From the NCBI GenBank assembly GCA_035651655.1, contig DASRFG010000029.1, forward strand, positions 1-64,000: 64,000 bases of DNA, in the 5' to 3' direction. Positions within the stretch are counted from its first letter, which is position 1; every line of letters starts with the position of its first letter. This DNA is from Terriglobales bacterium (GTDB lineage Bacteria > Acidobacteriota > Terriglobia > Terriglobales > Acidobacteriaceae). Shown piece by piece: positions 1 through 14,188 of the stretch. The notes under the pieces are model-generated. The model was not told the origin of the DNA and did no database searches. It saw only the letters and a list, made by a program, of their open reading frames with translations. Position numbers and translations under genes: made by a program.

Positions 1-1
1 G

Positions 2-151
2 CCCATCGCGGCAGGTAAGGAAATGGGTAAAGGATTCGGCCGGGGAGGCAAGAAAACCGGTCACGCAATCAAAGAAGCCGTCACTACAGAAAGTGATCGG
101 GGTGACCGGGAGAAAAAGCAAGAGCGTGCGGACCAGAAAGACCCACAGTAA
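2..151 (+). CDS. C-terminal fragment of an unidentified basic, glycine-rich small protein
   Basis: An open frame runs in from the left edge and stops at TAA 149-151, giving 49 visible residues. The sequence is rich in Gly, Lys and Arg early (repeated G-K/G-R steps around a GKGFGRGGKKTG stretch) and becomes charged and hydrophilic towards the end (…EKKQERADQKDPQ). It resembles the tails of small secreted, low-complexity proteins seen in acidobacteria, but no family can be named. The start lies outside the window. It ends about 90 bases before the likely start of the next gene on the same strand. Confidence 0.4.
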   Translation, partial: PIAAGKEMGKGFGRGGKKTGHAIKEAVTTESDRGDREKKQERADQKDPQ

Positions 152-239
152 TTCATCACTTCGGACCGACTCAACAACGCCGGACAGCACGAGAAATCCG
201 GCGCTGGTTGGGTCTTCGGTACGCGCGGATAAAGCGATT

Positions 240-1544
240 ATGTGCGATGAAGATCTCAGCCAACGGCACTGGCTTCGCACCGTGAGTATCCTTCTTTTCT
301 TCGTATGTGCCTTGAGTGCTCCCCTGTGCGTCAGCTACTCCGTCCTTACCCACGAAGAAGTCGTGGATCTACTCTGGGAGCACCCCATACGCGATCTTCT
401 GTTGCAGCGCTTTCCAGATGCGACGCCGGAGAATCTGCGCCGCGCACACGCCTATGCCTATGGTGGCTGCCTGATCCAGGACATGGGCTACTACCCATTC
501 GGCAATCGCCAGTTCAGCGACCTTGTGCATTACGTGCGCAGCGGCGATTTTGTGGAGGCCCTGATCACAGAGTCTGCCGATCTTAACGAGTATGCTTTCG
601 CCTTGGGCGCGCTCGCCCACTACGCCTCTGACGTAAGCGGCCATCCCGCCATCAATCATGCAGTGTCGCTGCGTTTCCCCAAGCTGCGGAAGAAGTACGG
701 CGAGTCAGTCACTTTCGCCCAAGATCCCAAAGCCCATATCCGCACTGAGTTTGGCTTCGACGTAACGCAGGTGGCAAAAAACCGCTTCGCCTCTGACGCG
801 TACCACGACTTCATTGGATTCGAAGTTTCAAAACCCTTGCTGGAACGCGCGTTCAAGAAAAATTACGGCCTGGAGCTGTCGGACATGTTTAACGATGTCG
901 ACTTGGCGATAGGCACTTATCGCCGCGCCATCAGCAGCGTCATTCCAGAAATGACGCGAGTCGCGCTGTTGATCAAGCCAGCTGACGCGGTTGTAGAAAC
1001 ACCCGGCCGCAACAAGAAGAGATTCCTGTACCACATCTCACGCGCACAGTATGCAAAGGAGTGGGGCAGAAAATTTCGGACCCCCGGTCCGGGCGCAAGA
1101 ATTCTCGCATTCATATTTCGATTGATCCCCAAAATCGGTCCGTTTAAAGCCATGGAATTCGAGCTCCCCAATACCCAAACCGAGGACCTTTTCCTGAAAA
1201 GCATCAATGACACCCTGGATAATTACCGTCTGCTGATGGCTGGGATGAAAGCGGGCAAGACCAAGCTGGTGAATCGCGACTTCGATACGGGTAATGAGAC
1301 CAAGGCCGGGGAGTACAAGCTCACCGATGACACCTACTCTACGCTCCTGGATAGAATCGCCGCAAAGAAGTTCACTTCAGTCAGCCCAGAATTGCGCGAC
1401 AACATTTTGTCATTTTATCAAGACCTTCACGCGCCAGTCTCCACCAAACGGCGCGCCGACCGCTGGAATAATACCCTCCGCGAGCTTCATCAGCTTCAGG
1501 AAGTCAAGGAGGCTGTTACCACAGTTCCATCGCCGTCTAACTAG
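240..1544 (+). CDS. Exported zinc-dependent phospholipase C-like protein
   Basis: This 434-aa protein resembles the bacterial zinc-dependent phospholipase C family, whose members hydrolyse phospholipid head groups. The frame is open upstream to 93, but that extension is low-complexity and overlaps the preceding frame. ATG 240 is preferred because it gives a basic n-region, a hydrophobic core (residues about 13-30) and a signal-peptide-like end. The family-like helical core follows: a Thr-His pair just after the signal (SVLTHEE), a Tyr/Gly-rich block with an aspartate (about residues 70-85), and a His/Asp cluster (HYASDVSGHPAINHA) that would supply zinc ligands. The C-terminal half is not recognisable. 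It is convergent with the kinase gene downstream. Substrate is unknown and the enzyme role is a family inference. Confidence 0.6.
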   Translation: MCDEDLSQRHWLRTVSILLFFVCALSAPLCVSYSVLTHEEVVDLLWEHPIRDLLLQRFPDATPENLRRAHAYAYGGCLIQDMGYYPFGNRQFSDLVHYVRSGDFVEALITESADLNEYAFALGALAHYASDVSGHPAINHAVSLRFPKLRKKYGESVTFAQDPKAHIRTEFGFDVTQVAKNRFASDAYHDFIGFEVSKPLLERAFKKNYGLELSDMFNDVDLAIGTYRRAISSVIPEMTRVALLIKPADAVVETPGRNKKRFLYHISRAQYAKEWGRKFRTPGPGARILAFIFRLIPKIGPFKAMEFELPNTQTEDLFLKSINDTLDNYRLLMAGMKAGKTKLVNRDFDTGNETKAGEYKLTDDTYSTLLDRIAAKKFTSVSPELRDNILSFYQDLHAPVSTKRRADRWNNTLRELHQLQEVKEAVTTVPSPSN

Positions 1545-1588
1545 GAGGGCCGGTTGCCAACTTCTCTGCCGGGCCCAGTGAGCGCGCC

Positions 1589-3037
1589 TTAACACGCTAC
1601 TGGCAACGAAAAATAAAACACCGATCCCCGGCCTAGCTGGCTAGTCACACCGATTGTGCCTCCGTGTAGTTCGACAATCGCTTTTGCGATCGCCAATCCC
1701 ATACCGGTGCCCTGAATGGATACTCTCTGGTTTCGCCCACGATAGAACTTCTCAAAAATCATTGACTGTTCAATATCGTCAATGCCAGGGCCGTGGTCGG
1801 CCACGCTGGTCACCAGTTGGCTGTCGCGCAATTCGGCGGTGATGTGCACAGGCGTGCCCGGCGGCGAGTATTTGCCTGCATTTTCCAGCAACTGGGCAAG
1901 CACTTCGGCAATACGCCGCACGTCCATACGCACCGGGGGAAGATTATCGGGGATGGAGACGTCCACCTTATGGTTCTCCAGAACGTGCTTGGAGTCCTGG
2001 AGCGCGGAATCCACGGCTTCGCGAATCTGATATGGCTGGAAATTAAGCTCGACCTGATGAGCGTCCAATTGTGCTACTTCCGTTGCCTCGCCGATCAGGC
2101 GATTGAGCCGATCGCTTTCCTCGTTGATTACCGTGGCCAGGTCTTTCAACTGCGGCTTGTCGAGTTCGACTTCAGACAGAAGCGTCTCCGCGGACGCTTT
2201 GATTGCGGTGAGCGGCGTCCGGAATTCGTGGGTTACGGAGTCGAGCAGCAATGAACGGAGCCGGTCGCTTTCCCGCGAGGCCTCGGCTTTTGTGAGCTTT
2301 TCCATGGTTGACACGCGCTCTATGGCAATGGCCACCAGGCTGCCGATTGCCTCCAGCGTCTCGCGAGACAAACTGCAGCCGAGCAGCCCCAGGCTTCCAA
2401 TCGAGCGCACCCCCATCCGCAACGGCATGAAACACGTACTATGTTGCCGATCCAGCACAGGTTCCCCGCGCTTGCTGATGGCGTTCAACTGTTCCGTTGA
2501 AATGAGCGACTGGACCGCAATGTCGGAGTAGTAAGTCTTCTGCTTGTTCTCCAGAAAGATAGCGGCGCCGCTTACTCCGAGAGACGCCACCACGAATCCG
2601 GGAACGTTGTTCAGCAATCCAAAGACGTTATCGCTAAGCAGGAGTTGTTGGCTAAACATGTAAAGCCGTTCCAGCTCGCGACGGCGCTGATGCGATTGCA
2701 ATGCTTCGCGACGCGCTCGCTCGGATAATTGGCTGGCAATTGTTGCGGTCGCCAGGAACGTGAGGAGCGCTACCCAGTTTTGTGGGTCGGCGATAGTGAA
2801 ATGAAACAATGGTGGCAGGAAAAAATAGTTGTAGGCCAGTGTCGCAAGCAGAGCCGTGAAAATCGCGTACCTCATTCCCCAGGTAGCGGAAATTAAGAGT
2901 ACGGCGAGCAAGAAAGTGAATCCCACGGTCGTGGGATTGACATGAATTATCCTCCAATAGACATAGGCGATTGCGGCAACTATCGATACCGCGGCAACGA
3001 AACGCAATAATGGTCGCCGGATGTCTTTCACGCGCAT
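1589..3037 (-). CDS. kdpD: KdpD-like sensor histidine kinase, C-terminal (membrane/kinase) half only
   Basis: This 482-aa protein matches the second half of classical KdpD, the sensor that phosphorylates KdpE during potassium limitation. Four membrane helices of the DUF4118 type occupy about residues 8-110, followed by a GAF-like region, a HisKA domain with phospho-acceptor His270 (VTHEFRTPL), and an HATPase domain with an N-box Asn (QLLENAGKYSPPG), a G1 box (DHGPGI) and a G2 box (GTGMGLAIAKAI). The KdpD N-terminal nucleotide-binding and Usp domains are absent. They are encoded by a separate gene that starts about 50 bp away on the opposite strand. ATG 3037 is preferred; an upstream start (3133) would overlap that gene. 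The two products probably act together. Confidence 0.88.
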   Translation of the reverse strand: MRVKDIRRPLLRFVAAVSIVAAIAYVYWRIIHVNPTTVGFTFLLAVLLISATWGMRYAIFTALLATLAYNYFFLPPLFHFTIADPQNWVALLTFLATATIASQLSERARREALQSHQRRRELERLYMFSQQLLLSDNVFGLLNNVPGFVVASLGVSGAAIFLENKQKTYYSDIAVQSLISTEQLNAISKRGEPVLDRQHSTCFMPLRMGVRSIGSLGLLGCSLSRETLEAIGSLVAIAIERVSTMEKLTKAEASRESDRLRSLLLDSVTHEFRTPLTAIKASAETLLSEVELDKPQLKDLATVINEESDRLNRLIGEATEVAQLDAHQVELNFQPYQIREAVDSALQDSKHVLENHKVDVSIPDNLPPVRMDVRRIAEVLAQLLENAGKYSPPGTPVHITAELRDSQLVTSVADHGPGIDDIEQSMIFEKFYRGRNQRVSIQGTGMGLAIAKAIVELHGGTIGVTSQLGRGSVFYFSLPVAC

Positions 3038-3087
3038 GATTGTATTCCATTCGACATTTGTGCCGACTGTCGACGAGAATAGCCACA

Positions 3088-4206
3088 ATGCCAAAGACGC
3101 CTGAGCAATGGCTGGAAGAAACAGCCGCGCCAAAGGAGCGAGGGATCTTCAAGCTCTTCCTGGGCTACGCCCCGGGCGTGGGTAAAACCTACAACATGCT
3201 CAGCGAGGGGATCCGCCGCCATAGCCGTGGCGAGGATGTCGTGATCGGCGTGGTAGAGACCCACGGACGTAAGGCAGTCGCGGAGCTTGCAACCCGGATG
3301 GATAGCGTCCCCCGCCGACAGATGCAATATAAAGGTGCGTCTTTCGAAGAGATGGACGTGGATGCCATCCTCGCCCGCAAACCGCAAGTTGTGCTGGTGG
3401 ATGAACTGGCCCATACCAACATCGAGGGCAGCAAACACCGTAAGCGTTACGAAGATGTTATGGAACTCCTGGACGCAAAGATCGACGTCATCTCAACTAT
3501 GAACGTGCAGCATATCGAAAGCCTGACGCCCCTCGTCCAAAGCATTACTGGCGTTCCAGTCCGCGAAACGGTCCCAGATTGGGTGCTGCAGCGGGTGAAT
3601 GAGGTTGTTTTGGCAGATCTGACCCCAGAAGCACTGCAGACGCGCATGCGGCGTGGTGACATCTACCCGGTGGACCGAGCGGAAAGAGCGCTGGGACATT
3701 TCTTCCGCCCCGGCAATCTCATCGCTCTTCGAGAGCTGGCTCTTCAGCAGGTCGCCAAAGCGGTGGATCGCAGCCTGGAATCTTATCTCGACAGGGAAGG
3801 CACGGGCAGCGCTGCCGTTCGTGAGCGCATTGGCGTCTGCATTAGCTCCAACCCCGTCGCGCAATATCTGATCGCGCGCGCAGGTCGAATGGCCAATCGG
3901 ATAGATGCAGAACTGTTCGTCATTTATGTGGACGTGGGAAGAGATAAAGGTCCGGAAGAACAACGCACGCTGGCCCAGAACATTCAGTTTGCCCAGAACC
4001 TTGGGGCCAAGATCCTCCGAGGCAAAGGCACGACTGTTGCGGAAGAAGTCGCAAAAATCGTCCGCGAAAATCACATCACACAAGTGATCTTTGGACGTTC
4101 AGCTCAGAGCGGTTGGAGGAGATACCTCTATCTTTCGGCAATACACAAGTTCCTGCGCGATGCTCCGCCTGTGGATGTTCACATCGTAACCCAAGAGGTG
4201 AAGTGA
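3088..4206 (+). CDS. kdpD: KdpD N-terminal half: KdpD input domain plus universal-stress-protein domain
   Basis: This 372-aa soluble protein corresponds to the cytoplasmic N-terminal input module of KdpD. A Walker-A-like loop lies at about residues 32-39 (GYAPGVGKT), and a Walker-B-like strand follows (VVLVDELAHTN). The KdpD domain continues to about residue 230, and a UspA-like domain fills about residues 245-370, with a GRS nucleotide-binding signature near its end. No transmembrane helix or kinase domain follows; the frame closes at 4206. ATG 3088 is chosen because it begins at the usual KdpD N-terminus, although the frame is open to 3040. KdpE starts 9 bases downstream, so the two are probably co-transcribed. 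The kinase half is the divergent neighbour. Lone KdpD N-domains are known in cyanobacteria, but here the missing half lies next door. Confidence 0.9.
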   Translation: MPKTPEQWLEETAAPKERGIFKLFLGYAPGVGKTYNMLSEGIRRHSRGEDVVIGVVETHGRKAVAELATRMDSVPRRQMQYKGASFEEMDVDAILARKPQVVLVDELAHTNIEGSKHRKRYEDVMELLDAKIDVISTMNVQHIESLTPLVQSITGVPVRETVPDWVLQRVNEVVLADLTPEALQTRMRRGDIYPVDRAERALGHFFRPGNLIALRELALQQVAKAVDRSLESYLDREGTGSAAVRERIGVCISSNPVAQYLIARAGRMANRIDAELFVIYVDVGRDKGPEEQRTLAQNIQFAQNLGAKILRGKGTTVAEEVAKIVRENHITQVIFGRSAQSGWRRYLYLSAIHKFLRDAPPVDVHIVTQEVK

Positions 4207-4215
4207 GCATCGCAA

Positions 4216-4917
4216 ATGCCTGAAGATGAGAAGCGAAAAATCCTCGTAGTTGATGACGAGCCGCAAATCACTCGCGTCCTGAAGACCACCCTGTCCACTC
4301 GCGGATACGCCATCCGAACCGCTGCCGATGGCGATGAGGCAGTCCAAACCATCAAACAGTGGTCGCCCGACCTGGTAATAACCGATCTGCGAATGCCCAA
4401 CATGGACGGCCTGGAGTTGTGCCGCTATATCCGGTCGAAGTCGCAGACGCCGATCATAGTTTTGTCGGTAAAAGGCGAAGACAAGATCAAAGTCGAAGCG
4501 CTGGATGCCGGCGCTGACGATTACGTGACCAAGCCGTTCAGCGTGCCTGAGTTGCTGGCGCGAGTGCGCGCGGCCCTGCGGCGCTCAGTGCCGACCCAAG
4601 CACTCGACCAGGGGCCGATCGCAGTCGGGCATTTTCGTATCGACCTGCAAGCGCACACTGTCCACGTGAGGAGCAAAGAAGTGCGCCTGACTCCGAAAGA
4701 GTTCGACCTGCTGGTTTATTTGGCACGTCGCCCCGGCAAGGTGGTGACTCATCGCGCGTTGCTATCGGGTGTGTGGGGCGAAAACAGCGTGGAGCAGCCC
4801 GAATACACTCGAGTCTTCGTCAACCACTTGCGCAAGAAAATTGAGCCCTCGGAAGGTAATCCTCGCTACATCCTGACTGAGCCGTGGATCGGCTATCGCT
4901 TCGAGCCGGGCGAGTAG
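4216..4917 (+). CDS. kdpE: KdpE, OmpR-family response regulator of the Kdp potassium system
   Basis: This 233-aa two-domain regulator carries a receiver (residues about 8-120) with the acidic pair in VVDDEP, phospho-acceptor Asp57 (VITDLRMP) and the conserved Lys in VTKPF. A winged-helix OmpR/PhoB output domain (about 135-230) follows, containing LTPKEFDLLVYLARRPG. Length matches KdpE. It follows the KdpD input-half gene by 9 bases and precedes the porin-kdpFABC cluster, so it is expected to activate that operon when phosphorylated. Four direct TTTTA boxes with 11-bp period just downstream are the obvious candidate binding site. Confidence 0.93.
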   Translation: MPEDEKRKILVVDDEPQITRVLKTTLSTRGYAIRTAADGDEAVQTIKQWSPDLVITDLRMPNMDGLELCRYIRSKSQTPIIVLSVKGEDKIKVEALDAGADDYVTKPFSVPELLARVRAALRRSVPTQALDQGPIAVGHFRIDLQAHTVHVRSKEVRLTPKEFDLLVYLARRPGKVVTHRALLSGVWGENSVEQPEYTRVFVNHLRKKIEPSEGNPRYILTEPWIGYRFEPGE

Positions 4918-4964
4918 CTCGTTCCTCCAGCCATTCTTCTGCGAACAGAACGAGTCTCCCGGAT

Positions 4965-5008
4965 TTTTACAAAACTTTTATGCACTTTTTATCCCCCTTT
5001 TATGCCTG
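4965..5008 (+). promoter_or_regulatory. Four tandem 11-bp TTTTA boxes, candidate KdpE operator
   Basis: Four direct repeats start at 4965, 4976, 4987 and 4998, exactly 11 bp apart: TTTTACAAAAC, TTTTATGCACT, TTTTATCCCCC, TTTTATGCCTG. Direct repeats with helical phasing are typical sites for OmpR/PhoB-family regulators. The KdpE gene ends 47 bases upstream and the porin-kdpFABC genes begin about 28 bases downstream. That short distance suggests the boxes overlap the -35 region or that the transcript leader is very short. Binding by KdpE is inferred. Confidence 0.65.
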
Positions 5009-5036
5009 GCGTTGTTGAATTGAATTGACCGCGGCA

Positions 5037-6224
5037 ATGTTCATTCGGCCATCATCTCGTCTCAGAGATCGGCACCTTCAGCTTGGAATTTGCACCATCG
5101 CCCTGCTGGTCACTTCGTTGCGAGCGCAATCAGATACTCAGGCAAATGCGCCGGCCCTACCTCCCTGGCAATATGGCGGATTCGTGGACTCCGCCTACTT
5201 GTTGGATTTCAATTACCCTTCAAATCATTTGTTTCGCAGCCGAGGCACGACTTACAAGGTTGACGAGCCAATTCTTAACATGGCCGCCGCATACGTGCAG
5301 AAGAACACTTCCGAGTTATCGCGCTGGGGATTGCAATTGACTGTGCAGGGTGGACAAGACTCCAGGGTGTTTGGATTCTCCGCAACCGCACCCAACCTTG
5401 CCGGGTCCGAGTGGCTGCGCCATTTTGGGCCAACCAACGTTTCCTACTTGGCACCAGTCGGTAAGGGACTGACGCTGCAAGGTGGAATTTTCAGCAGCTT
5501 TATCGGCTACGACTCGCTCTATGCCAAGGACAACTTCAATTACACACGCCCCTGGGGCGCAGACTTCACGCCCTATTTGATGTTGGGCGTCAACGCTCAA
5601 TATCCGCTTACTAAAAAGCTAACAGCCGCCCTTTTTGTGATAAACGGCTATTGGCATTTGGCTGACGCCAACAGTGTTCCGAGTTCCGGCGGCCAAGTTG
5701 CGTTCAAACCCACTGAGCACACGACCTTTAAACAGACGGTGCTCTACGGGCCACACCAGTCGGATACATCACTTCAGTTCTGGCGGTTCTTGTCTGACAG
5801 TATCGCAGAGTGGAAGCACGACCCGGCTACGATTGCATTCGAATATCAGGTGTCAGAAGAAAGAGTTGCTACGGCTGGAAATCCGCGCGCCTTGTGGATG
5901 TCGGCGCAGTTGCCGGCGCACTGGAGTTTCAACAAGCACTGGAGCGCGACCGTGAGGCCTGAGGTTGCATGGGATCGCAACGGGCGCTGGACCGGATTCG
6001 CGCAGACGGTTAAAGCCTTCACCAGCACGCTGGAATACCGCATTCCATTCCGGCAAGCGAATGCCATCATACGATTGGAGCATCGGGTCGACGATTCCCG
6101 CGGGCCCGGCGGTGGCTTCTTCAACGATGGGGAAGTTCGTCCGGGCGTGGCTCGACTCACAGCAACGCAAAACCTTTTGATTTTGGGAGTGATTTTGACG
6201 TTCGATTCACAATTTCGTCCGTAG
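5037..6224 (+). CDS. Outer-membrane beta-barrel porin heading the kdp operon
   Basis: This 395-aa protein has an N-terminal signal peptide (hydrophobic core about residues 16-27, ending near RAQ). The body rich in alternating aromatic and polar strands is typical of the OmpL-like beta-barrel porin family (porin-2 type), and the last strand ends in TFDSQFRP. ATG 5037 is preferred over a TTG at 5025, though neither has a strong ribosome-binding site. It lies between kdpE and kdpF on the same strand, 16 bases before the next small gene. I infer it lets K+ cross the outer membrane when the inner-membrane Kdp pump is induced. The channel specificity cannot be read from sequence. Confidence 0.72.
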   Translation: MFIRPSSRLRDRHLQLGICTIALLVTSLRAQSDTQANAPALPPWQYGGFVDSAYLLDFNYPSNHLFRSRGTTYKVDEPILNMAAAYVQKNTSELSRWGLQLTVQGGQDSRVFGFSATAPNLAGSEWLRHFGPTNVSYLAPVGKGLTLQGGIFSSFIGYDSLYAKDNFNYTRPWGADFTPYLMLGVNAQYPLTKKLTAALFVINGYWHLADANSVPSSGGQVAFKPTEHTTFKQTVLYGPHQSDTSLQFWRFLSDSIAEWKHDPATIAFEYQVSEERVATAGNPRALWMSAQLPAHWSFNKHWSATVRPEVAWDRNGRWTGFAQTVKAFTSTLEYRIPFRQANAIIRLEHRVDDSRGPGGGFFNDGEVRPGVARLTATQNLLILGVILTFDSQFRP

Positions 6225-6240
6225 CTTTTTCGGAGGTTGT

Positions 6241-6327
6241 ATGCAGGATTTTATTTTCGTCGCGGTGACGGTACTGTTTTTCGTCATGTCTATTGGCTAC
6301 GTTCGCTTCTGCGAAAAAGAGAAGTGA
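6241..6327 (+). CDS. 28-aa single-span membrane peptide upstream of kdpF
   Basis: ATG 6241 is preceded by a clear Shine-Dalgarno (CGGAGG, about 7 bases upstream) and the frame closes at TGA 6325-6327. The peptide has one hydrophobic helix (about residues 4-19, rich in Val and Phe) and a charged tail (RFCEKEK). It is too short for ordinary gene calls. It sits 16 bases after the porin and 12 bases before kdpF. It does not match the KdpF pattern as well as the next small gene. It could be an additional Kdp accessory peptide or a KdpF paralogue. The tiny size limits confidence, but the SD and position support real translation. Confidence 0.55.
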   Translation: MQDFIFVAVTVLFFVMSIGYVRFCEKEK

Positions 6328-6339
6328 GATCAAAACGCT

Positions 6340-6429
6340 ATGCACCTGGAATCGGCAATCATGCTCACAGTAAGCGCTTTGATGATGGTGTACTTGCTAT
6401 ACGCGCTGCTTCGCCCGGAGAAATTCTGA
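6340..6429 (+). CDS. kdpF: KdpF, small subunit of the Kdp potassium pump
   Basis: This 29-aa single-helix peptide ends in YALLRPEKF, the typical KdpF tail (Tyr-Ala-Leu-Leu/Ile then a Pro/Ala-Glu-Lys/Ala-Phe end). KdpF is a lipid-like stabiliser of the KdpABC complex in the inner membrane. It ends one base before the kdpA start codon, so translation is likely coupled. Its own SD is weak (GTGAGAT). Size and position are exactly those expected. Confidence 0.82.
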
Positions 6430-6430
6430 C

Positions 6431-8230
6431 ATGACGGTGAATGGATGGCTGCAGATCGCTGTCTTTTTCGGGCTGGTTCTCGCGGTCACCAAACCCATAG
6501 GCATCTTCATGGCGCGCGTCTTCAGCCGCGAGAGGACGTTCATGGATCCGGTGCTGCGCCCCGTCGAGCGCCTGCTCTACCTCGTGACCGGAGCGGACGA
6601 AAACCATGAGATGCGCTGGACGGAGTACGCCGTTTCGATGCTGCTATTCAGCCTGGTGCCGATGCTGCTCCTGTACTTGATGGAACGTATACAGGGATTC
6701 CTGCCGTTCAATCCGCAAAAACTGGCGGCGGTCCCGCCCGCGCTGGCGTTCAATACGGCAGCGTCTTTTACCACCAATACCAACTGGCAGAATTATAGCG
6801 GCGAAACCACCATGAGCTATTTGACCCAAATGGCTGGCCTTGCCTACCACAACTTCATTTCTGCCGCCGTAGGTATCGTGCTGGCCATCGCTTTCATTCG
6901 AGGCATCGCGCGCCGCGAGAAGGAAACGATCGGCAACTTCTGGGTTGATCTGGTGCGCTGCACTTTGTGGGTTTTACTGCCGTTCTGCCTGGTTGGCTCG
7001 CTGCTCCTGGTCTCGCAGGGCGTGGTTCAAAATCTTAAGCCCTATGACACGGTGAAACTCGTCGAGCCCCAGCAGGTGCAGAAGACCGGCCCTGACGGCA
7101 AGCCGATGGTCGGTCCCGACGGCAAGCCAGTGATGGACACGGTCACGGAACAGGTGATCGCGCAGGGTCCCGTAGCTTCACAGGAAATTATCAAAGAGTG
7201 GGGCACGAACGGCGGCGGTTTTTTTAACGCCAACAGCGCTCACCCGTTCGAGAATCCGACACCATTGTCTAACCTCATTGAACTGTTCTCGATCTTCGCA
7301 GTTTCTTCCGGTTTGACGTACACACTCGGCCGCATGACGGGCTCACAAGCGCATGGCTGGGCAGTGTGGGCGGCCATGGCAGTTCTGTTTGTAGCCGGTG
7401 TGAGCACCACGTACTGGGCGGAAGCTCGCGGAAATCCGCTGCTGCCAAGCGGCGTTGACCAGCGTGTGAACGCTCTGCAACCGGGCGGAAATATGGAGGG
7501 CAAGGAAGTACGCTTCGGAATCGCCAATACAGCTTTGTGGGCCACTGTCACCACGGACGCAAGTTGCGGCGCCATCAACGGCTGGCACGATTCCTTCACG
7601 CCGCTCGGCGGGTTGGTGCCGCTGGTGAACATCATGCTCAGCGAGGTGATCTTCGGCGGAGTGGGCGCCGGGATGTACGGCATTCTTATTTATGTGGTGC
7701 TGGCGGTATTCATCGCCGGACTTATGGTGGGCCGCACGCCTGAGTATCTCGGAAAGAAGATTGAAGCCTACGACGTGAAGATGGCCATGCTTGTAGTTCT
7801 GGTGTTTCCGCTGGTGATCCTGGTTTTCACGGCGATTTCGGCAATTAAGCCGTTCGGCACTTCGAGCATTCTGAATCCCGGGCCGCACGGCTTGAGCGAG
7901 ATCCTCTACTCCTTTACATCGCAAGCGGGAAACAACGGCTCTGCCTTCGCAGGACTGACCACGAACACGCTTTGGTACAACACCGCCGGTGGTTTAACAA
8001 TGTTGATTGGGCGCTTCTTCATGATCATCCCCATGCTGGCAATTGCCGGCAATCTCGCTCGCAAGCGCTATGTGCCGCCATCGCTCGGCACTTTTCCCGT
8101 GACCACGCCGCTGTTCACCGTGCTCCTGGTCGGCGTGATCATCATTGTGGGCGCGCTGACTTTTTTCCCAGCCTTGAGCCTGGGACCGATTTTGGAACAC
8201 CTGTTGATGATGGCTGGCAAGACGTTCTGA
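6431..8230 (+). CDS. kdpA: KdpA, potassium-translocating channel subunit of the Kdp ATPase
   Basis: KdpA (599 aa) is the K+-channel-like subunit of the high-affinity KdpFABC importer. The four selectivity-filter/P-loop blocks typical of the family are present: [51 protein letters not shown] and [13 protein letters not shown]. About ten membrane helices are visible. It is about 40 residues longer than the E. coli protein. Part of the excess is a periplasmic-loop insertion near residues 220-240 containing a tandem GPDGKP repeat. It starts 1 base after kdpF and is followed 9 bases later by kdpB. Confidence 0.97.
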
Positions 8231-8239
8231 GAATTATTT

Positions 8240-10267
8240 ATGGCGACCAAGAAAAAGGCTGTCTGGGAATGGAAGATCGTTCGTCGTGCCATATGGGACG
8301 CATTCCTGAAACTTAACCCGCGCAAGATGATGGGGAACCCTGTCATGTTCGTGGTGGAGATTGGCAGCGTAATCACAACTGTGTTGCTGGTCCGCGGCGG
8401 CACAGCCTTCAAGTTCAATCTGCAGATCACACTGTGGCTGTGGTTCACGGTGCTGTTCGCTAACTTCGCTGAGGCCATGGCGGAAGGCCGCGGCAAAGCC
8501 CAGGCGGACACCCTGCGCCGAGCACGCGCGGAGACGGTGGCGAATCGCATTCTGGTGAATGGCAAGAGCGAAAAAGTTCCCAGTTCACACCTGCGCGCTG
8601 GAGATACGGTCCTTGTCTCGGCAGGTGAATTCATCCCCTCGGATGGCGAGATCATCGAGGGCGTAGCTTCAGTTGACGAGTCTGCCATAACCGGCGAATC
8701 CGCGCCCGTCATTCGCGAGGCTGGCGGCGATCGCTCAGCAGTAACGGGTGGCACTCGGGTTCTTTCGGATCACATCAAAGTTAAGGTGACCTCCAATCCC
8801 GGCGAAACCTTTCTTGATCGAATGATCGCCCTGGTGGAAGGTGCGGAACGCCAAAAAACGCCCAATGAAATTGCTTTGAATATTCTGCTCGCCGGTTTGA
8901 CCATCATCTTTTTGCTGGCGGTCGTGAGCCTGCAGCCTTTCGCCATCTACTCCGGTTCGCCGCAGAGCGTCTTCGTGCTGGTGTCGCTGCTGGTGTGTCT
9001 GATCCCGACCACCATAGGCGGCCTGCTCTCGGCCATCGGTATTGCCGGCATGGACCGGCTGATTCAGCACAACGTGCTCGCCATGTCGGGCCGCGCCGTG
9101 GAGGCGGCCGGCGACGTGAACACGCTCCTGCTGGACAAAACTGGCACCATCACCCTCGGCAATCGCCAGGCATCGCGCTTCATTCCGGCGCCAGGGGTCA
9201 CGGAGCGAGAGTTGGCAGACGCCGCACAGCTTTCTTCATTGGCGGACGAGACCCCCGAAGGCCGTTCGATCGTGGTCCTCGCCAAAGAGATGTACGGCCT
9301 GCGTGGTCGCGAGCTGTCGTCTCGGGAGGCTCAGTTCGTGCCCTTCTCGGCGCAGACGCGCATGTCCGGTGTGAACCTCGATAGTTTCGAAATTCGCAAG
9401 GGTGCGACCGACGCAATAAGAAACTATGTCTGTCAAAACGGCGGCGATTTCCCGAGCCAGGTCCAGGAGCAAGTGGACCAAATCGCCCGTTTCGGCGGCA
9501 CGCCGCTGGTAGTTGCCGAGAAAGGTCGCGGTGCACTTGGTGTCATTGAACTAAAGGACATTGTGAAGGGCGGAATGCGCGACCGCTTTGACCAGCTTCG
9601 TGCCATCGGTATTCGAACCGTGATGATTACCGGTGACAATCCGCTCACCGCTGCCGCCATTGCGCGTGAGGCTGGCGTGGACGACTTCCTGGCGCAAGCC
9701 ACTCCCAAGGATAAAATGGATTTGATCAAGCGGGAACAAGCCGGTGGCAAGCTGGTCGCAATGACCGGCGACGGCACCAACGACGCTCCCGCCCTGGCCC
9801 AGGCAGACGTTGGCGTGGCCATGAACACCGGCACGCAGGCCGCCAAAGAAGCCGGCAACATGGTGGACCTCGACTCCAATCCCACTAAACTCATCGAGGT
9901 AGTCGAAATCGGCAAGCAGCTTCTGATGACGCGCGGCGCGCTGACGACGTTTTCTATCGCGAACGACGTTGCCAAGTATTTCGCGATTATCCCGGCGATG
10001 TTCGCCGGCACCTTCCCGGTGCTGAATGCGCTGAACATTATGCATTTGCAGACCGCCCAGTCGGCAGTATTATCGGCGGTCATCTTTAACGCTCTCATTA
10101 TTATTGCGTTGATCCCTCTCGCGCTGCGGGGCGTGAAATACCGGCCGATGGGGGCAGCCGCGCTGTTGCGGCGCAATCTGTGGCTCTATGGATTTGGGGG
10201 AATTATCATCCCGTTCATTGGGATCAAACTGCTTGATGTTTTAATCATGCACGTGGGTCTGGCGTAG
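8240..10267 (+). CDS. kdpB: KdpB, P-type ATPase catalytic subunit of the Kdp system
   Basis: KdpB (675 aa) couples ATP hydrolysis to K+ import. The P-type hallmarks are all present: the TGES actuator loop (ITGESAPV), phosphorylated Asp299 in [10 protein letters not shown], the nucleotide-binding KGAT motif (IRKGATDA), and the hinge [12 protein letters not shown]. Length matches the family (682 in E. coli). Membrane helices lie at about 35-90, 220-280 and 575-670. Tight spacing to kdpA (9 bases) and kdpC (10 bases) indicates one operon. Confidence 0.98.
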
Positions 10268-10277
10268 AGAAGCTTAC

Positions 10278-10865
10278 ATGAAAAATAATTTGCTCACTGC
10301 CCTCTGGATGACCATCGCGACCACCATACTGCTAGGTATCATCTACCCGCTGGTAGTCACCGGCATCGCGCAACTTGTGTTTCCTGCTAAGGCCAATGGC
10401 CAATTGATCCAGCGCGACGGAACCATCATCGGGTCGCGGATCATCGGCCAGCCCTTCACTGGTCCGGCATATTTCCATTCTCGACCCTCGGCAGCGGGAA
10501 ATGGTTACGATGCTGCGAACTCAGGTGGCACGAACCTGGGGCCGACCAACCATAAGCTGATTGACCGCGTACAACAGGACGCCGCTGCGTTGTCGGCCGG
10601 GAATTCGGGAAAGCCTATCCCAATCGATCTGGTCACCACCTCTGCCTCTGGCCTGGATCCCAACATTTCTCTTGCGGCTGCGGATTTCCAGATCGCCCGC
10701 GTGGCACGCGAACGCGGAATCAGCGAAGATCAGCTCCGCGGACTGATCGCTACCCACACTGCAGGCCGGCAGCTTGGATTTTTGGGGGAGGTCCGCGTGA
10801 ACGTCCTTGAGCTGAACCTTGACTTGGATTCAAAACACCCACTGCAGGAGCATACTTCGAGGTAA
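10278..10865 (+). CDS. kdpC: KdpC, assembly/affinity subunit of the Kdp ATPase
   Basis: KdpC (195 aa) has one N-terminal membrane helix (residues about 8-30) and a periplasmic domain with the family block QPFTGPAYFHSRPSA and the VTTSASGLDPNIS motif. Its length is normal (190 in E. coli). It is last in kdpFABC. The 224 bases downstream hold no gene that I can support and no strong terminator. A short 6-bp hairpin (CTACTG/CAGTAG) lies in this gap but lacks a T-run. Confidence 0.96.
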   Translation: MKNNLLTALWMTIATTILLGIIYPLVVTGIAQLVFPAKANGQLIQRDGTIIGSRIIGQPFTGPAYFHSRPSAAGNGYDAANSGGTNLGPTNHKLIDRVQQDAAALSAGNSGKPIPIDLVTTSASGLDPNISLAAADFQIARVARERGISEDQLRGLIATHTAGRQLGFLGEVRVNVLELNLDLDSKHPLQEHTSR

Positions 10866-11089
10866 CGGCGATTTAGTTTACACAGGGACGCAGTGAATGC
10901 GTAGAAATCGAACCTCGAACCTACTGATTGTGGAACAGTAGCTAATCTGTCGGCTTTGCGGCGGTGGTGGCGTTTTGCGCTCAGGCCCGCCGTGATCTCC
11001 GTTGGCAAAAAATGCCGAACTGAATATGTACTTCGGTCGCAACTAACGGCCATCGCCAGGGTTAATTCGTTCTATTATAGTGTTGTCAA

Positions 11090-11446
11090 ATGCCAAGGAT
11101 TTTGTCAGTGTCATACGATGAAGGGCTGCTCAAGAGTCGCCAATTGTTGCTTGAGCGTCAGGGGTGCGAAGTAGTATCTGCCCACGGATACACAGCAGCC
11201 TTGGATGAATGCAACAGCGGCAATCCATATCATCTTTTCATTCTTGGGCATTCAATTCCCCACAAAGACAAGGAATCCCTGGTCGCTGCTTTTCGCGCTC
11301 ACTACTCGGCCCCCATAATCGCGCTGAAAAAAACCGGTGAGGGGCCTGTTCAAGGTGCAGATTTTCTCATTGACCCCGAACCGACCGAACTGCTTGCCTT
11401 GGTTGCCAAAGTCGTTGCTCAGAAAGCTCAGCACAAAGGACCTTGA
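11090..11446 (+). CDS. Single-domain receiver-like protein lacking the phospho-acceptor Asp
   Basis: This 118-aa protein has the CheY-like fold pattern. An acidic pair (D10 E11) follows the first strand. The third strand ends LFILGHSIP, where the usual Asp of the LDxxMP motif is Gly53. A GADFLIDPEPTELLALV segment then matches the end of a receiver. Without Asp53 it is unlikely to be phosphorylated in the normal way and may be a pseudo-receiver acting by protein contact. No SD is visible. A TATTAT box at 11073-11078 lies only about 12 bases before ATG 11090, which could mean a very short or leaderless transcript. It stands alone between kdpC and the surface-protein gene. Confidence 0.72.
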   Translation: MPRILSVSYDEGLLKSRQLLLERQGCEVVSAHGYTAALDECNSGNPYHLFILGHSIPHKDKESLVAAFRAHYSAPIIALKKTGEGPVQGADFLIDPEPTELLALVAKVVAQKAQHKGP

Positions 11447-11698
11447 TTTCAAACTCGCGCCATCCACATGTCAGTTCCAGTTATGAACATTGACGCGCGG
11501 TGCTATCTCCCGCACTAATGACGCTGTTTGCTGGCTGCGCAGACGTACGACTCCAAGGGTCTGGGGTCGCCGCTCACCGCCAAATAGACTCTTAACCCGG
11601 CCAACCCGAGTTCCTGGCCAAGAACTCTAAAACTCAGAACGGATGTGACCAGTTGCTGCTCTTTTACCCATCCTTAAGGTTCCCCTGCCGAGGCTTGC

Positions 11699-14188
11699 AT
11701 GACATCCCCAAAGTGGCTTTTGCCCGCAGTTCTATGTTGTTTCGTGTTGTCGCTGTGTGGTGCAACAAACACCGGCGGGTCCTCTAGGGCCCAGTTCTCA
11801 CCGCGGACCAGTCTTCCGTTAACATTCGAACGCAATGAGGGACAGGCCGATTCCGCCGTCAAGTTTTTGGGACGAGCGCCTGGTTACACGGTATTTTTCA
11901 CCTCTTCCTCTGCGCTGTTGGTAGTTCCTCTTCCGGACAAACAAGGTCTCGCGACGATCGGCTTTGTGCCGGTCGGTCCCGGCCGTATGTCGCGGCGGCG
12001 CGTTGTGGGTGAACATCAGCTACCTACGCGAAGCAATTATTTGCGCCGTAGGCACTCCGCCGCAGATATAAGAGGTATCCCAAGTTACGCTCGGGTTCAC
12101 TACGAAAACGTTGCTCCTGGAGTTGTGTTTGAGTATTACTCACGCAATGGGCGACTAGAATATGACATTGCTGCTGCTCCGCGCTCACACCTGAGAGATA
12201 TCGCTGTTAAGATCCTTGGCGCCAGCAACATCTCCGTTGATCACAATGGAGATCTCGTAGTGCAGACGCCGGCAGGCCAGTTCCTCCAACATAAGCCCTT
12301 GGCTTATCAACAAGTCGGCAGTACGCGCGTGCTAATTCCGGCTCGCTACAGACTCCTGAGCGGCAACAAAGTCGGGTTTAGTTTGGCGCCATACAATCAT
12401 GATAAGCAACTGGTCATTGATCCCGTTCTAACCTATTCAACTTACATAGGCGGGAGCACGCAAACCTCGGATGGCGTCTCGTCTGCAGCCACGTCTCTCG
12501 GTAGCGGCATCGGAATTGATGCCTCTAACAACGTCTATGTATCCGGATTCACGACTGCTGTGGATTTCCCCATCACCCCAGGTGCGTACGATTCCACCAT
12601 TAGTCAACCCTGCACGCGCAGTAATGGTTGTTATTCCGCAGATGAATTCATTGCCAAGTTCTCTCCTTCCGGGAAATTGCTGTATTCCACTTTTCTTGGT
12701 CCCGGGGTCGGTGACGGGAATTTCCAGCCTCATTCGGATCCTCCACTGGCAGTGGATGCTGTTGGCAACGCTTATATCGCTTCCACAGGTTTGCCTTGCG
12801 ACGATTGTTTCCAGTCCGAAGTTTCCATCGAGAAGCTGGATCCAACGGGCTCCCGGCTGCTCTACAGTTATCAGTACAACCTCGAGGGAGACGCGAGTGC
12901 CAACGCAGTAGCGGTCGATAGCGCGGCTCACCTGTACGTGGCTGGCAATTGGAACCAGGATGCCGGGCCAGCCTCTCCCCCGGGAAGCCAGATAGGAAGC
13001 GCGACCAATTGCTACATATTAAAACTCGACACCACTAAATCTGGCAGCTCATCGGTAGATTACACAACGTTAATCGGAGTCGCAGGCAGCACAGGTACCG
13101 GCATCAGTGGCATTGCCATTGATAACAGCGGTCACGCCTACGTCGCCGGTCCCACCGATTCTCCAAATTTTCCCCATACCACTCAATACGGCACTGGAAG
13201 CAACTCCTTCGTAATGAAGCTCAACACGAGCGGGAGTTCGTATCTGTACTCCGTAATAGTGGGTGGAGCAATTACCAATGCCATTGCAGTGGATCAATCT
13301 GGCAATGCATATTTGACGGGACAGGGCCTGCGCTCAGGATTTCCGACGACCTCGAACGCGTCTCAGTCTTCTTTTGGTGGCGGAACATCAGACGCCTTTC
13401 TGTTAAAGCTGAGTTCAACCGGTGGCTTGGCCTATGCGACCTACATCGGTGGCGGTGGCGAGGAGTCTGGAACAGCTGTGGCTGTTAGGTATGGTTATCC
13501 CGCAATCTCCGGTTCGACGAATTCAACCAACTTCCCGGTAACCGCGAACGCATTCCAACGCACTAATGCCGGTACGTGGAATGCATTCATTGACTTTCGT
13601 CACAATGACAGCAACTTAACCAGGTTCTACTCCACTCTCTTGGGAGGTAACAAACAGGACTGGTCGACTGGCGTAGCCCTCGATACCGGACTTAACGCGT
13701 ATGTTACCGGAAGCGCCACGTCAGACCGCTTCCCCGTCACCTCCAATGCATATCAGGCAACGTTACGGGGAGCCCAAGACGCATTTCTATCAAAGATCGT
13801 TATCGCGGGGGACTTGGCAATGAAACTTACGCAATCCTCCAGTTCGGTGGCGCAGGGCTCGAATCTCACCTACACTGCCCGAGTGTCCAATAATGGCCCG
13901 GATACCTCCTCTGGGCTCGTCCTCAAGGATGTTCTTCCGAGTAGGTCGACCTTCGTCTCTTACACGATCACCGCTGGAAGCTGTTCCCACCCAGCCGTCG
14001 GTAGCACCGGGACTGTGGCCTGCAGCCTGAATTCTTTGCCAAAGGGAGCGCTGTGGACGCTCACCCTAACCAGTACCGTTCATTCCGCGAAAGGAAGTTC
14101 TATAACCGATACCGCCCAGGTGAGCGCAAAAACTCAGGATTTGTCACCTGGAAACAACAAGGCGAGTGCTACCACGGCTGTGTTTTAG
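11699..14188 (+). CDS. Secreted SBBP beta-propeller repeat protein with C-terminal DUF11 domain
   Basis: This 829-aa protein has a signal peptide (hydrophobic residues about 6-22) and an N-terminal region of about 220 residues of the kind that precedes SBBP repeats (starts FERNEGQADSAVKF, ends LVIDPVLTYSTYIGG). Repeated SBBP-type units follow to about residue 700, each with a YSTYIGG/YSTLLGG-like strand and a DxxGNAYxTG turn. One DUF11-like Ig domain lies at about 705-829 (SNNGPDTSSGLVLKDVLP…LNSLPKGALWTLTLTS). Such proteins are abundant in acidobacteria and presumed surface exposed or adhesive; no function is established. It stands alone, with 252 bases of non-coding DNA upstream and an M61 remnant immediately downstream in the same frame. 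Confidence 0.85.
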   Translation: MTSPKWLLPAVLCCFVLSLCGATNTGGSSRAQFSPRTSLPLTFERNEGQADSAVKFLGRAPGYTVFFTSSSALLVVPLPDKQGLATIGFVPVGPGRMSRRRVVGEHQLPTRSNYLRRRHSAADIRGIPSYARVHYENVAPGVVFEYYSRNGRLEYDIAAAPRSHLRDIAVKILGASNISVDHNGDLVVQTPAGQFLQHKPLAYQQVGSTRVLIPARYRLLSGNKVGFSLAPYNHDKQLVIDPVLTYSTYIGGSTQTSDGVSSAATSLGSGIGIDASNNVYVSGFTTAVDFPITPGAYDSTISQPCTRSNGCYSADEFIAKFSPSGKLLYSTFLGPGVGDGNFQPHSDPPLAVDAVGNAYIASTGLPCDDCFQSEVSIEKLDPTGSRLLYSYQYNLEGDASANAVAVDSAAHLYVAGNWNQDAGPASPPGSQIGSATNCYILKLDTTKSGSSSVDYTTLIGVAGSTGTGISGIAIDNSGHAYVAGPTDSPNFPHTTQYGTGSNSFVMKLNTSGSSYLYSVIVGGAITNAIAVDQSGNAYLTGQGLRSGFPTTSNASQSSFGGGTSDAFLLKLSSTGGLAYATYIGGGGEESGTAVAVRYGYPAISGSTNSTNFPVTANAFQRTNAGTWNAFIDFRHNDSNLTRFYSTLLGGNKQDWSTGVALDTGLNAYVTGSATSDRFPVTSNAYQATLRGAQDAFLSKIVIAGDLAMKLTQSSSSVAQGSNLTYTARVSNNGPDTSSGLVLKDVLPSRSTFVSYTITAGSCSHPAVGSTGTVACSLNSLPKGALWTLTLTSTVHSAKGSSITDTAQVSAKTQDLSPGNNKASATTAVF

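What the first reader, a model, noticed from the sequence alone, without database searches (positions are those of the whole stretch)
1589..4206. KdpD is split into two complementary, divergently transcribed genes
The + gene (372 aa) holds only the KdpD nucleotide-binding and Usp domains; the - gene (482 aa) holds only the four DUF4118 helices, GAF, HisKA and HATPase domains. Together they make a near full-length KdpD, cut at its natural domain boundary, with start codons about 50 bp apart on opposite strands. A simple frameshift cannot give this; an inversion or separate recruitment is needed. The input module sits with kdpE, while the kinase has its own promoter, so their ratio could be regulated. 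It implies that the input module acts in trans.
Basis: partly seen in the sequence, partly recalled or inferred. Interest (0 to 1): 0.72.

Follow-up and report, generated by a model that had tools for sequence, protein, structure and literature searches.

The report
Split KdpD potassium sensor gene pair
An acidobacterium carries its potassium sensor KdpD as two separate, back-to-back genes; this is a long-inherited version of a split that is already known, in which the front half most likely switches the potassium pump off directly while the back half controls the pump's genes.

Summary
A 372-aa KdpD+Usp protein (3088-4206, +) and a 482-aa TM/GAF/HisKA/HATPase kinase (1589-3037, -) start 50 bp apart. 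They align to E. coli KdpD residues 10-368 and 406-880, and the genome has no other KdpD domain.

It is neither a recent break nor new in kind. The same divergent pair occurs in 79 sampled genomes of the same family, in two other families of the class, and in 76 of 80 other fetched loci. Split KdpD is published for Deinococcus, and a 2024 survey names KdpD/Usp + TM/GAF/kinase as the commonest split form.

Best mechanism: KdpD-N is an atypical serine kinase that inhibits the pump by phosphorylating KdpB (TGES serine). Its GKT and Walker B DE residues are kept in 81 of 81 pairs. The other half is a normal histidine kinase for KdpE, and four KdpE half-sites lie before the porin-kdpFABC genes. So 'input module in trans' is possible, but probably not the main role.

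Open point: many family members with this pair lack a c-di-AMP cyclase (the window's genome has one), so what controls the detached serine kinase there is unknown. The Usp tyrosine linked to c-di-AMP binding tracks cyclase presence, but the tree shows essentially one event.

The parts
1589..3037 (-). Kinase half of KdpD (482 aa): four TM helices (DUF4118), GAF-like domain, HisKA, HATPase_c; GTG at 3031 is an equally likely start
   Evidence: Pfam; colinear with E. coli KdpD 406-880; model pLDDT 77.7; H270, N386, D414, G443 and G447 conserved in nearly all of 81 homologues
3038..3087 (.). 50-bp divergent intergenic region with back-to-back promoter-like elements: - strand TACAAT (3044-3039) 7 nt before the GTG at 3031; + strand TCGACA (3051-3056) - 18 nt - GAGAAT (3075-3080) 7 nt before the ATG at 3088. 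No KdpE-type repeat
   Evidence: Sequence; -10-like boxes at about the same distance in most Tyr-clade homologues and before the kinase start; 0 of 81 have the KdpE repeat here. Promoter function is inferred
3088..4206 (+). KdpD-N half (372 aa): KdpD Walker A/B domain plus Usp; predicted atypical serine kinase for KdpB
   Evidence: Pfam/NCBIfam; E. coli 10-368 at 41%; GKT, Walker B DE and R190 equivalent kept; similar to 2r8r and 7ji4
4216..4917 (+). kdpE-type response regulator (OmpR/PhoB), 233 aa
   Evidence: PF00072 + PF00486; KdpE is among several near-equal NCBIfam hits; kdpE by context
4966..5004 (+). Candidate KdpE operator: four TTTAYR-type half-sites, TTTACA-TTTATG-TTTATC-TTTATG, each separated by 5 bp
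   Evidence: 3 overlapping matches against 0.12 expected; same rule as E. coli TTTATA-N5-TTTACA (PMC3264566); enriched after kdpE in relatives, 20/67 against 29/2999 background windows
5025..6224 (+). BBP2 (OmpL-like) outer-membrane porin between kdpE and kdpF
   Evidence: PF07642 1.5e-51; porin of the same kind at the same place in some relatives
6340..6429 (+). Probable kdpF (29 aa, one TM helix); a second small one-TM ORF lies at 6241-6327
   Evidence: ORF list, place and resemblance to KdpF; not confirmed by a family model
6431..8230 (+). kdpA
   Evidence: TIGR00680 above its cut-off
8240..10267 (+). kdpB; keeps TGES (E161, S162 of E. coli), the target site of the KdpD serine kinase
   Evidence: TIGR01497; alignment
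10278..10865 (+). kdpC
   Evidence: TIGR00681

Best explanation
This is a split KdpD whose two halves do two jobs. KdpD-N is a soluble atypical serine kinase: its Walker A/B site binds ATP and, when K+ is plentiful, phosphorylates the TGES serine of KdpB and shuts the KdpFABC pump off. The TM/GAF/DHp/CA half is a membrane histidine kinase that senses K+ shortage and phosphorylates KdpE, which binds the repeat at 4966-5004 and turns on porin-kdpFABC. Separate chains and back-to-back promoters let pump inhibition and pump-gene induction be set independently. In this genome c-di-AMP, bound by the Usp domain, is the likeliest signal for KdpD-N. Shown here: architecture, catalytic residues, target serine, candidate operator, conservation, presence of a cyclase gene. 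Inferred: both enzymatic activities, promoter function and the c-di-AMP input.
For: G-K-T and Walker B D-E are identical in 81 of 81 divergent pairs; W39 of E. coli is Y here and Y/F in 76 of 81, and R190 is kept. KdpB keeps TGES. The histidine-kinase H, N and G boxes are kept. The KdpE half-site array stands before the pump genes and not between the two halves. One diadenylate cyclase gene in the genome. Usp residues aligned with S. aureus S244 and Y271 are S253 and Y280. Published precedent: the KdpD N domain alone phosphorylates KdpB S162, and the KdpD/Usp-only protein of D. geothermalis does so, stimulated by c-di-AMP (PMC11018627); D. radiodurans has a split kdpD on opposite strands (PMC5716572; L085).
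Against: No activity was measured. W39 of E. coli (adenine contact) is Tyr here. Of the c-di-AMP contacts in S. aureus KdpD, S246 and N249 are Asn and Ala here. Many family members with the pair lack any DAC domain (37 of 79 sampled pairs), so c-di-AMP cannot be the general input. E. coli data show the N domain also affecting KdpE/DNA and repression at high K+ (PMC2714519), so a purely post-translational role is not certain.
Confidence: 0.7

Rival explanations
1. One reading: KdpD-N is mainly an input/regulatory module that docks in trans on the membrane kinase (or on KdpE-P/DNA), restoring an assembled KdpD, and its expression ratio tunes kinase/phosphatase output. (It can hold together with the serine kinase role.)
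For: The halves together cover nearly all of KdpD and are kept side by side in 81 sampled pairs. In E. coli the two cytoplasmic domains interact, the N domain alone gives constitutive kdpFABC expression, and N-truncated KdpD cannot repress at high K+ (PMC2714519). In cyclase-lacking relatives the serine kinase has neither c-di-AMP nor a covalently linked K+ sensor, so contact with the kinase half would supply an input.
Against: Residues needed for serine kinase catalysis (Walker B E110) are invariant. KdpD/Usp-only proteins exist without any kinase half in other species and are active on KdpB (PMC11018627). No interaction was tested.
Confidence: 0.35
2. The pair is decaying or redundant: one or both halves are remnants and another system controls the pump.
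For: Some relatives show no kdpABC in the stretch fetched around the pair; one MAG locus (L277) shows a broken kinase frame.
Against: Catalytic residues of both halves are nearly invariant in 81 pairs; conserved promoter-like boxes; intact pump genes and a candidate KdpE operator.
Confidence: 0.03
3. The kinase half is not derived from KdpD but is an unrelated DUF4118 kinase recruited next to kdpD-N.
For: Only 24% identity to the E. coli KdpD C half; split kinases form a group apart from nearly all full-length C halves.
Against: End-to-end colinear alignment with KdpD 406-880; best NCBIfam hit is KdpD; a full-length KdpD (L099) falls among the split kinases and also among split N halves. The C tree has no good outgroup, so this is unsettled.
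Confidence: 0.15

Closest known systems
Split KdpD of Deinococcus radiodurans (kdpD-N DR_B0088 with SK DR_B0082 / RR DR_B0081)
   Same: KdpD/Usp protein and histidine kinase on separate chains and opposite strands, with the Kdp pump (PMC5716572; L085)
   Different: There the kinase and regulator share one operon that diverges from kdpBAC-kdpD-N, and the annotated kinase is HAMP-type; here the kinase alone diverges and KdpD-N heads the kdpE/pump side
KdpD/Usp atypical serine kinase + TM/GAF/DHpCA histidine kinase class of Silberberg et al. 2024
   Same: This pair of domain architectures, named there as the commonest split combination (PMC11018627)
   Different: The word Acidobacteria and the divergent gene order with 50-bp back-to-back promoters do not appear in its main text (word count, passages read); many family members here lack a diadenylate cyclase
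NCBIfam NF038185 KdpD_non_kinase
   Same: Best NCBIfam model for the N half, full-length match (379 bits)
   Different: Below its curated cut-off of 550 bits, so not a formal member
E. coli KdpD (full length)
   Same: All domains in the same order, both halves colinear
   Different: One chain there, two here; the linker of about 37 residues is absent

Membership tests
Split KdpD (KdpD/Usp + TM/GAF/DHpCA, PMC11018627) | N chain with KdpD and Usp only | tested here: met
Split KdpD (KdpD/Usp + TM/GAF/DHpCA, PMC11018627) | Second chain with TM, GAF, DHp and CA | tested here: met
   Pfam, BLASTP colinearity and model; GAF by alignment and fold shape only, no Pfam GAF hit
Split KdpD (KdpD/Usp + TM/GAF/DHpCA, PMC11018627) | No full-length KdpD in the genome | tested here: met
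   one PF02702 match in G000
KdpD-type atypical serine kinase | Walker A GKT, Walker B D109/E110, W39/R190, KdpB E161/S162 | tested here: met
   all present, with Tyr for W39
KdpD-type atypical serine kinase | Phosphorylates KdpB | not testable with these tools
   needs purified proteins
c-di-AMP-binding KdpD Usp | S244 and Y271 of S. aureus KdpD | tested here: met
   S253 and Y280
c-di-AMP-binding KdpD Usp | S246 and N249 of S. aureus KdpD | tested here: not met
   Asn255 and Ala258
c-di-AMP-binding KdpD Usp | Diadenylate cyclase in the genome | tested here: met
   PF02457 at C7:93008; absent in 37 of the 79 sampled family pairs
NCBIfam NF038185 KdpD_non_kinase | Score above curated cut-off 550 | tested here: not met
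   379 bits

The most novel reading that the evidence does not exclude
In the many Acidobacteriaceae that keep the divergent pair but have no diadenylate cyclase, the detached KdpD serine kinase has neither c-di-AMP nor a covalently attached K+ sensor. It would then be controlled by non-covalent assembly with the histidine kinase half, or by another ligand in the Usp pocket (where the key Tyr has mostly become His), a mode of KdpD control not yet described.
Probability: 0.3. Interest if true: 0.55.

Novelty: new member of a known kind. Interest (0 to 1): 0.3.

Why it matters
It shows that the split between pump inhibition (serine kinase) and gene control (histidine kinase) is a stable design kept across a whole family of soil bacteria. 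It also gives a natural experiment: close relatives with the same gene pair, with and without c-di-AMP synthesis, can be compared to learn what signal controls the detached serine kinase.

Tried and rejected
1) A recent fission or assembly artefact: rejected, because the pair recurs in scores of genomes.
2) An apparent full-length 872-aa KdpD in G033: rejected; the long frame simply runs on antisense to the divergent kinase gene (L049).
3) Tyr280 against diadenylate cyclase as proof of c-di-AMP binding: 42/42 Tyr with cyclase and 32/37 His without (family f1 pairs). On the tree this is essentially one deep change (4 changes for cyclase, 2 for residue, 0-1 informative pairs), so it is suggestive only.
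4) Fission against recruitment from trees: both halves separate from most full-length KdpDs, but the other DUF4118 proteins of the genome were too distant to root the kinase tree.
5) A c-di-AMP riboswitch or other Rfam RNA in 1-12000: none.
6) PDB fold search with the whole kinase model returned histidine-kinase cores and phytochromes in the listed rows, no KdpD GAF entry among them; it added little.

Full report
OBSERVATION. The window holds a 372-aa KdpD+Usp gene (3088-4206, +) and a 482-aa DUF4118/HisKA/HATPase_c gene (1589-3037, -), whose ATGs are separated by 50 bp. BLASTP aligns them to E. coli KdpD residues 10-368 (41% identity) and 406-880 (24%), so the two together cover KdpD except the linker of about 37 residues. 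Pfam sees no GAF in the kinase half, but the E. coli GAF region is covered by the alignment, and the AlphaFold2 model (36 homologues, mean pLDDT 77.7) has four N-terminal helices, a long linker helix, a confident alpha/beta domain at about 138-240, then DHp and CA. There is one KdpD domain in the 99.8%-complete genome. Downstream of kdpD-N come a kdpE-type regulator, a BBP2 porin, a probable kdpF, and kdpA, kdpB and kdpC.

HOW COMMON IT IS. Of 200 family genomes at least 90% complete, 179 carry a KdpD domain; nearly all listed open frames are far too short for a full KdpD, and the one 872-aa frame that was looked at (G033) is an overlong frame antisense to its kinase gene. Extracted regions gave 81 loci with the kinase divergent from kdpD-N (79 in the window's family, one each in two other families of the class), gap median 52 bp and 20-80 bp in 67 of 81, usually followed by kdpE. 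About half of these regions were picked for lacking a diadenylate cyclase, so the counts by cyclase are not a random sample. In an independent scan of named genome records, 76 of the 80 best loci have the divergent pair; the other four are at contig edges or have a broken kinase frame. Elsewhere in the phylum, full-length KdpD of about 900 aa and co-oriented split forms (HK-kdpE-kdpABC-kdpD-N) also occur. In a tree of N halves the window type is one clade next to co-oriented split forms, while E. coli and most full-length forms are a separate clade; the kinase halves show a comparable separation, with a weaker root. So the pair is inherited, and no private inversion event is needed for this genome.

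WHAT EACH HALF DOES. Silberberg et al. (PMC11018627) showed that the KdpD N domain is an atypical serine kinase phosphorylating KdpB S162, with Walker A GKT, Walker B D109/E110 and the pair W39/R190 needed, and KdpB E161 helping. All are present here, with Tyr in place of W39, and KdpB keeps TGES. GKT and DE are identical in 81 of 81 divergent pairs. The same paper names KdpD/Usp + TM/GAF/DHpCA as the most common split combination, and shows that the KdpD/Usp protein of D. geothermalis is stimulated by c-di-AMP and not by K+. The kinase half keeps the phospho-acceptor His270 and the N and G boxes.

WHERE KdpE ACTS. E. coli KdpE binds TTTATA-N5-TTTACA (PMC3264566). At 4966-5004, between kdpE and the porin, there are four such half-sites (TTTACA, TTTATG, TTTATC, TTTATG) at strict 11-bp spacing; the pattern occurs nowhere else in 64 kb, with 0.12 matches expected. 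In relatives it is found within 300 bp after kdpE in 20 of 67, against 29 of 2999 background windows, and in 0 of 81 between the two kdpD halves. The divergent region instead carries conserved -10-like boxes about 7 nt before both starts, which suggests leaderless messages and separate promoters. This is inference from conservation; in the cyclase-lacking (His) clade the box before kdpD-N is not seen.

INPUT OF THE DETACHED SERINE KINASE. The genome has one diadenylate cyclase. Against S. aureus KdpD Usp (7ji4; PMC8214093, PMC4686210), S244 and Y271 are kept (S253, Y280), while S246 and N249 are not. Within the family the position of Y280 is Tyr in 42 of 42 divergent pairs from cyclase-bearing genomes, and His in 32 (Tyr in 5) of 37 from cyclase-lacking ones. 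On a tree built without the Usp columns this is essentially one deep event, so it is a lead and not proof. It does show that the pair persists where c-di-AMP is apparently not made, so some other control must exist there; contact with the kinase half is one candidate. D. radiodurans KdpD-N itself lacks both residues in the same alignment, so the motif is not a safe predictor outside the Firmicutes. E. coli precedents for action of the separated N domain on KdpE signalling exist (PMC2714519).

VERDICT. A real, well-conserved feature and a new set of members of a known kind (split KdpD). The most likely mechanism is division of labour: serine kinase on the pump, histidine kinase on KdpE. The novelty lies in details: gene order, cyclase-free lineages, and predicted inactive KdpD-N paralogues elsewhere in the phylum.

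Noticed in passing
L038:2453, L040:9993, L042:10096, L046:6076, L047:7849, L051:7991, L066:949, L067:2155, L071:9574, L077:9323, L129:4893, L130:9590, L131:10096: Several other Acidobacteriota carry two tandem KdpD-N genes after or near the pump genes: one intact, and one with GKS and Walker B D-G (E110 lost), a predicted pseudo-kinase. These paralogues, plus L078:8857 (Walker B D-A), form one clade across several families.
   Followed up: partly
L037, L048, L055, L057, L060, L063, L069, L107, L117, L171-L173, L175, L179, L180, L194-L196: A second KdpD-N type in the family lies directly behind a HAMP-PAS histidine kinase, with no kdpABC in the stretch fetched; in L060 a BcsQ-like ATPase gene is near. 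The GKT and DE residues are kept, so its target is unclear.
   Followed up: partly
L099:1150-3864: A full-length KdpD from family f39 falls among split forms in both the N and the C tree, which suggests re-fusion (or a late split next to it).
   Followed up: no
window 11090-11446: 118-aa ORF downstream of kdpC that looks like a receiver domain with the phospho-acceptor Asp replaced (..LFILGHSIP..); no Pfam hit, and no homologue in the other kdp stretches extracted.
   Followed up: no
window 6241-6327: 28-aa one-TM ORF just upstream of kdpF, possibly an extra small Kdp-linked membrane peptide.
   Followed up: no
window 93-1544: Predicted zinc-dependent phospholipase C-type protein (PF00882) converging on the kinase gene.
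   Followed up: no
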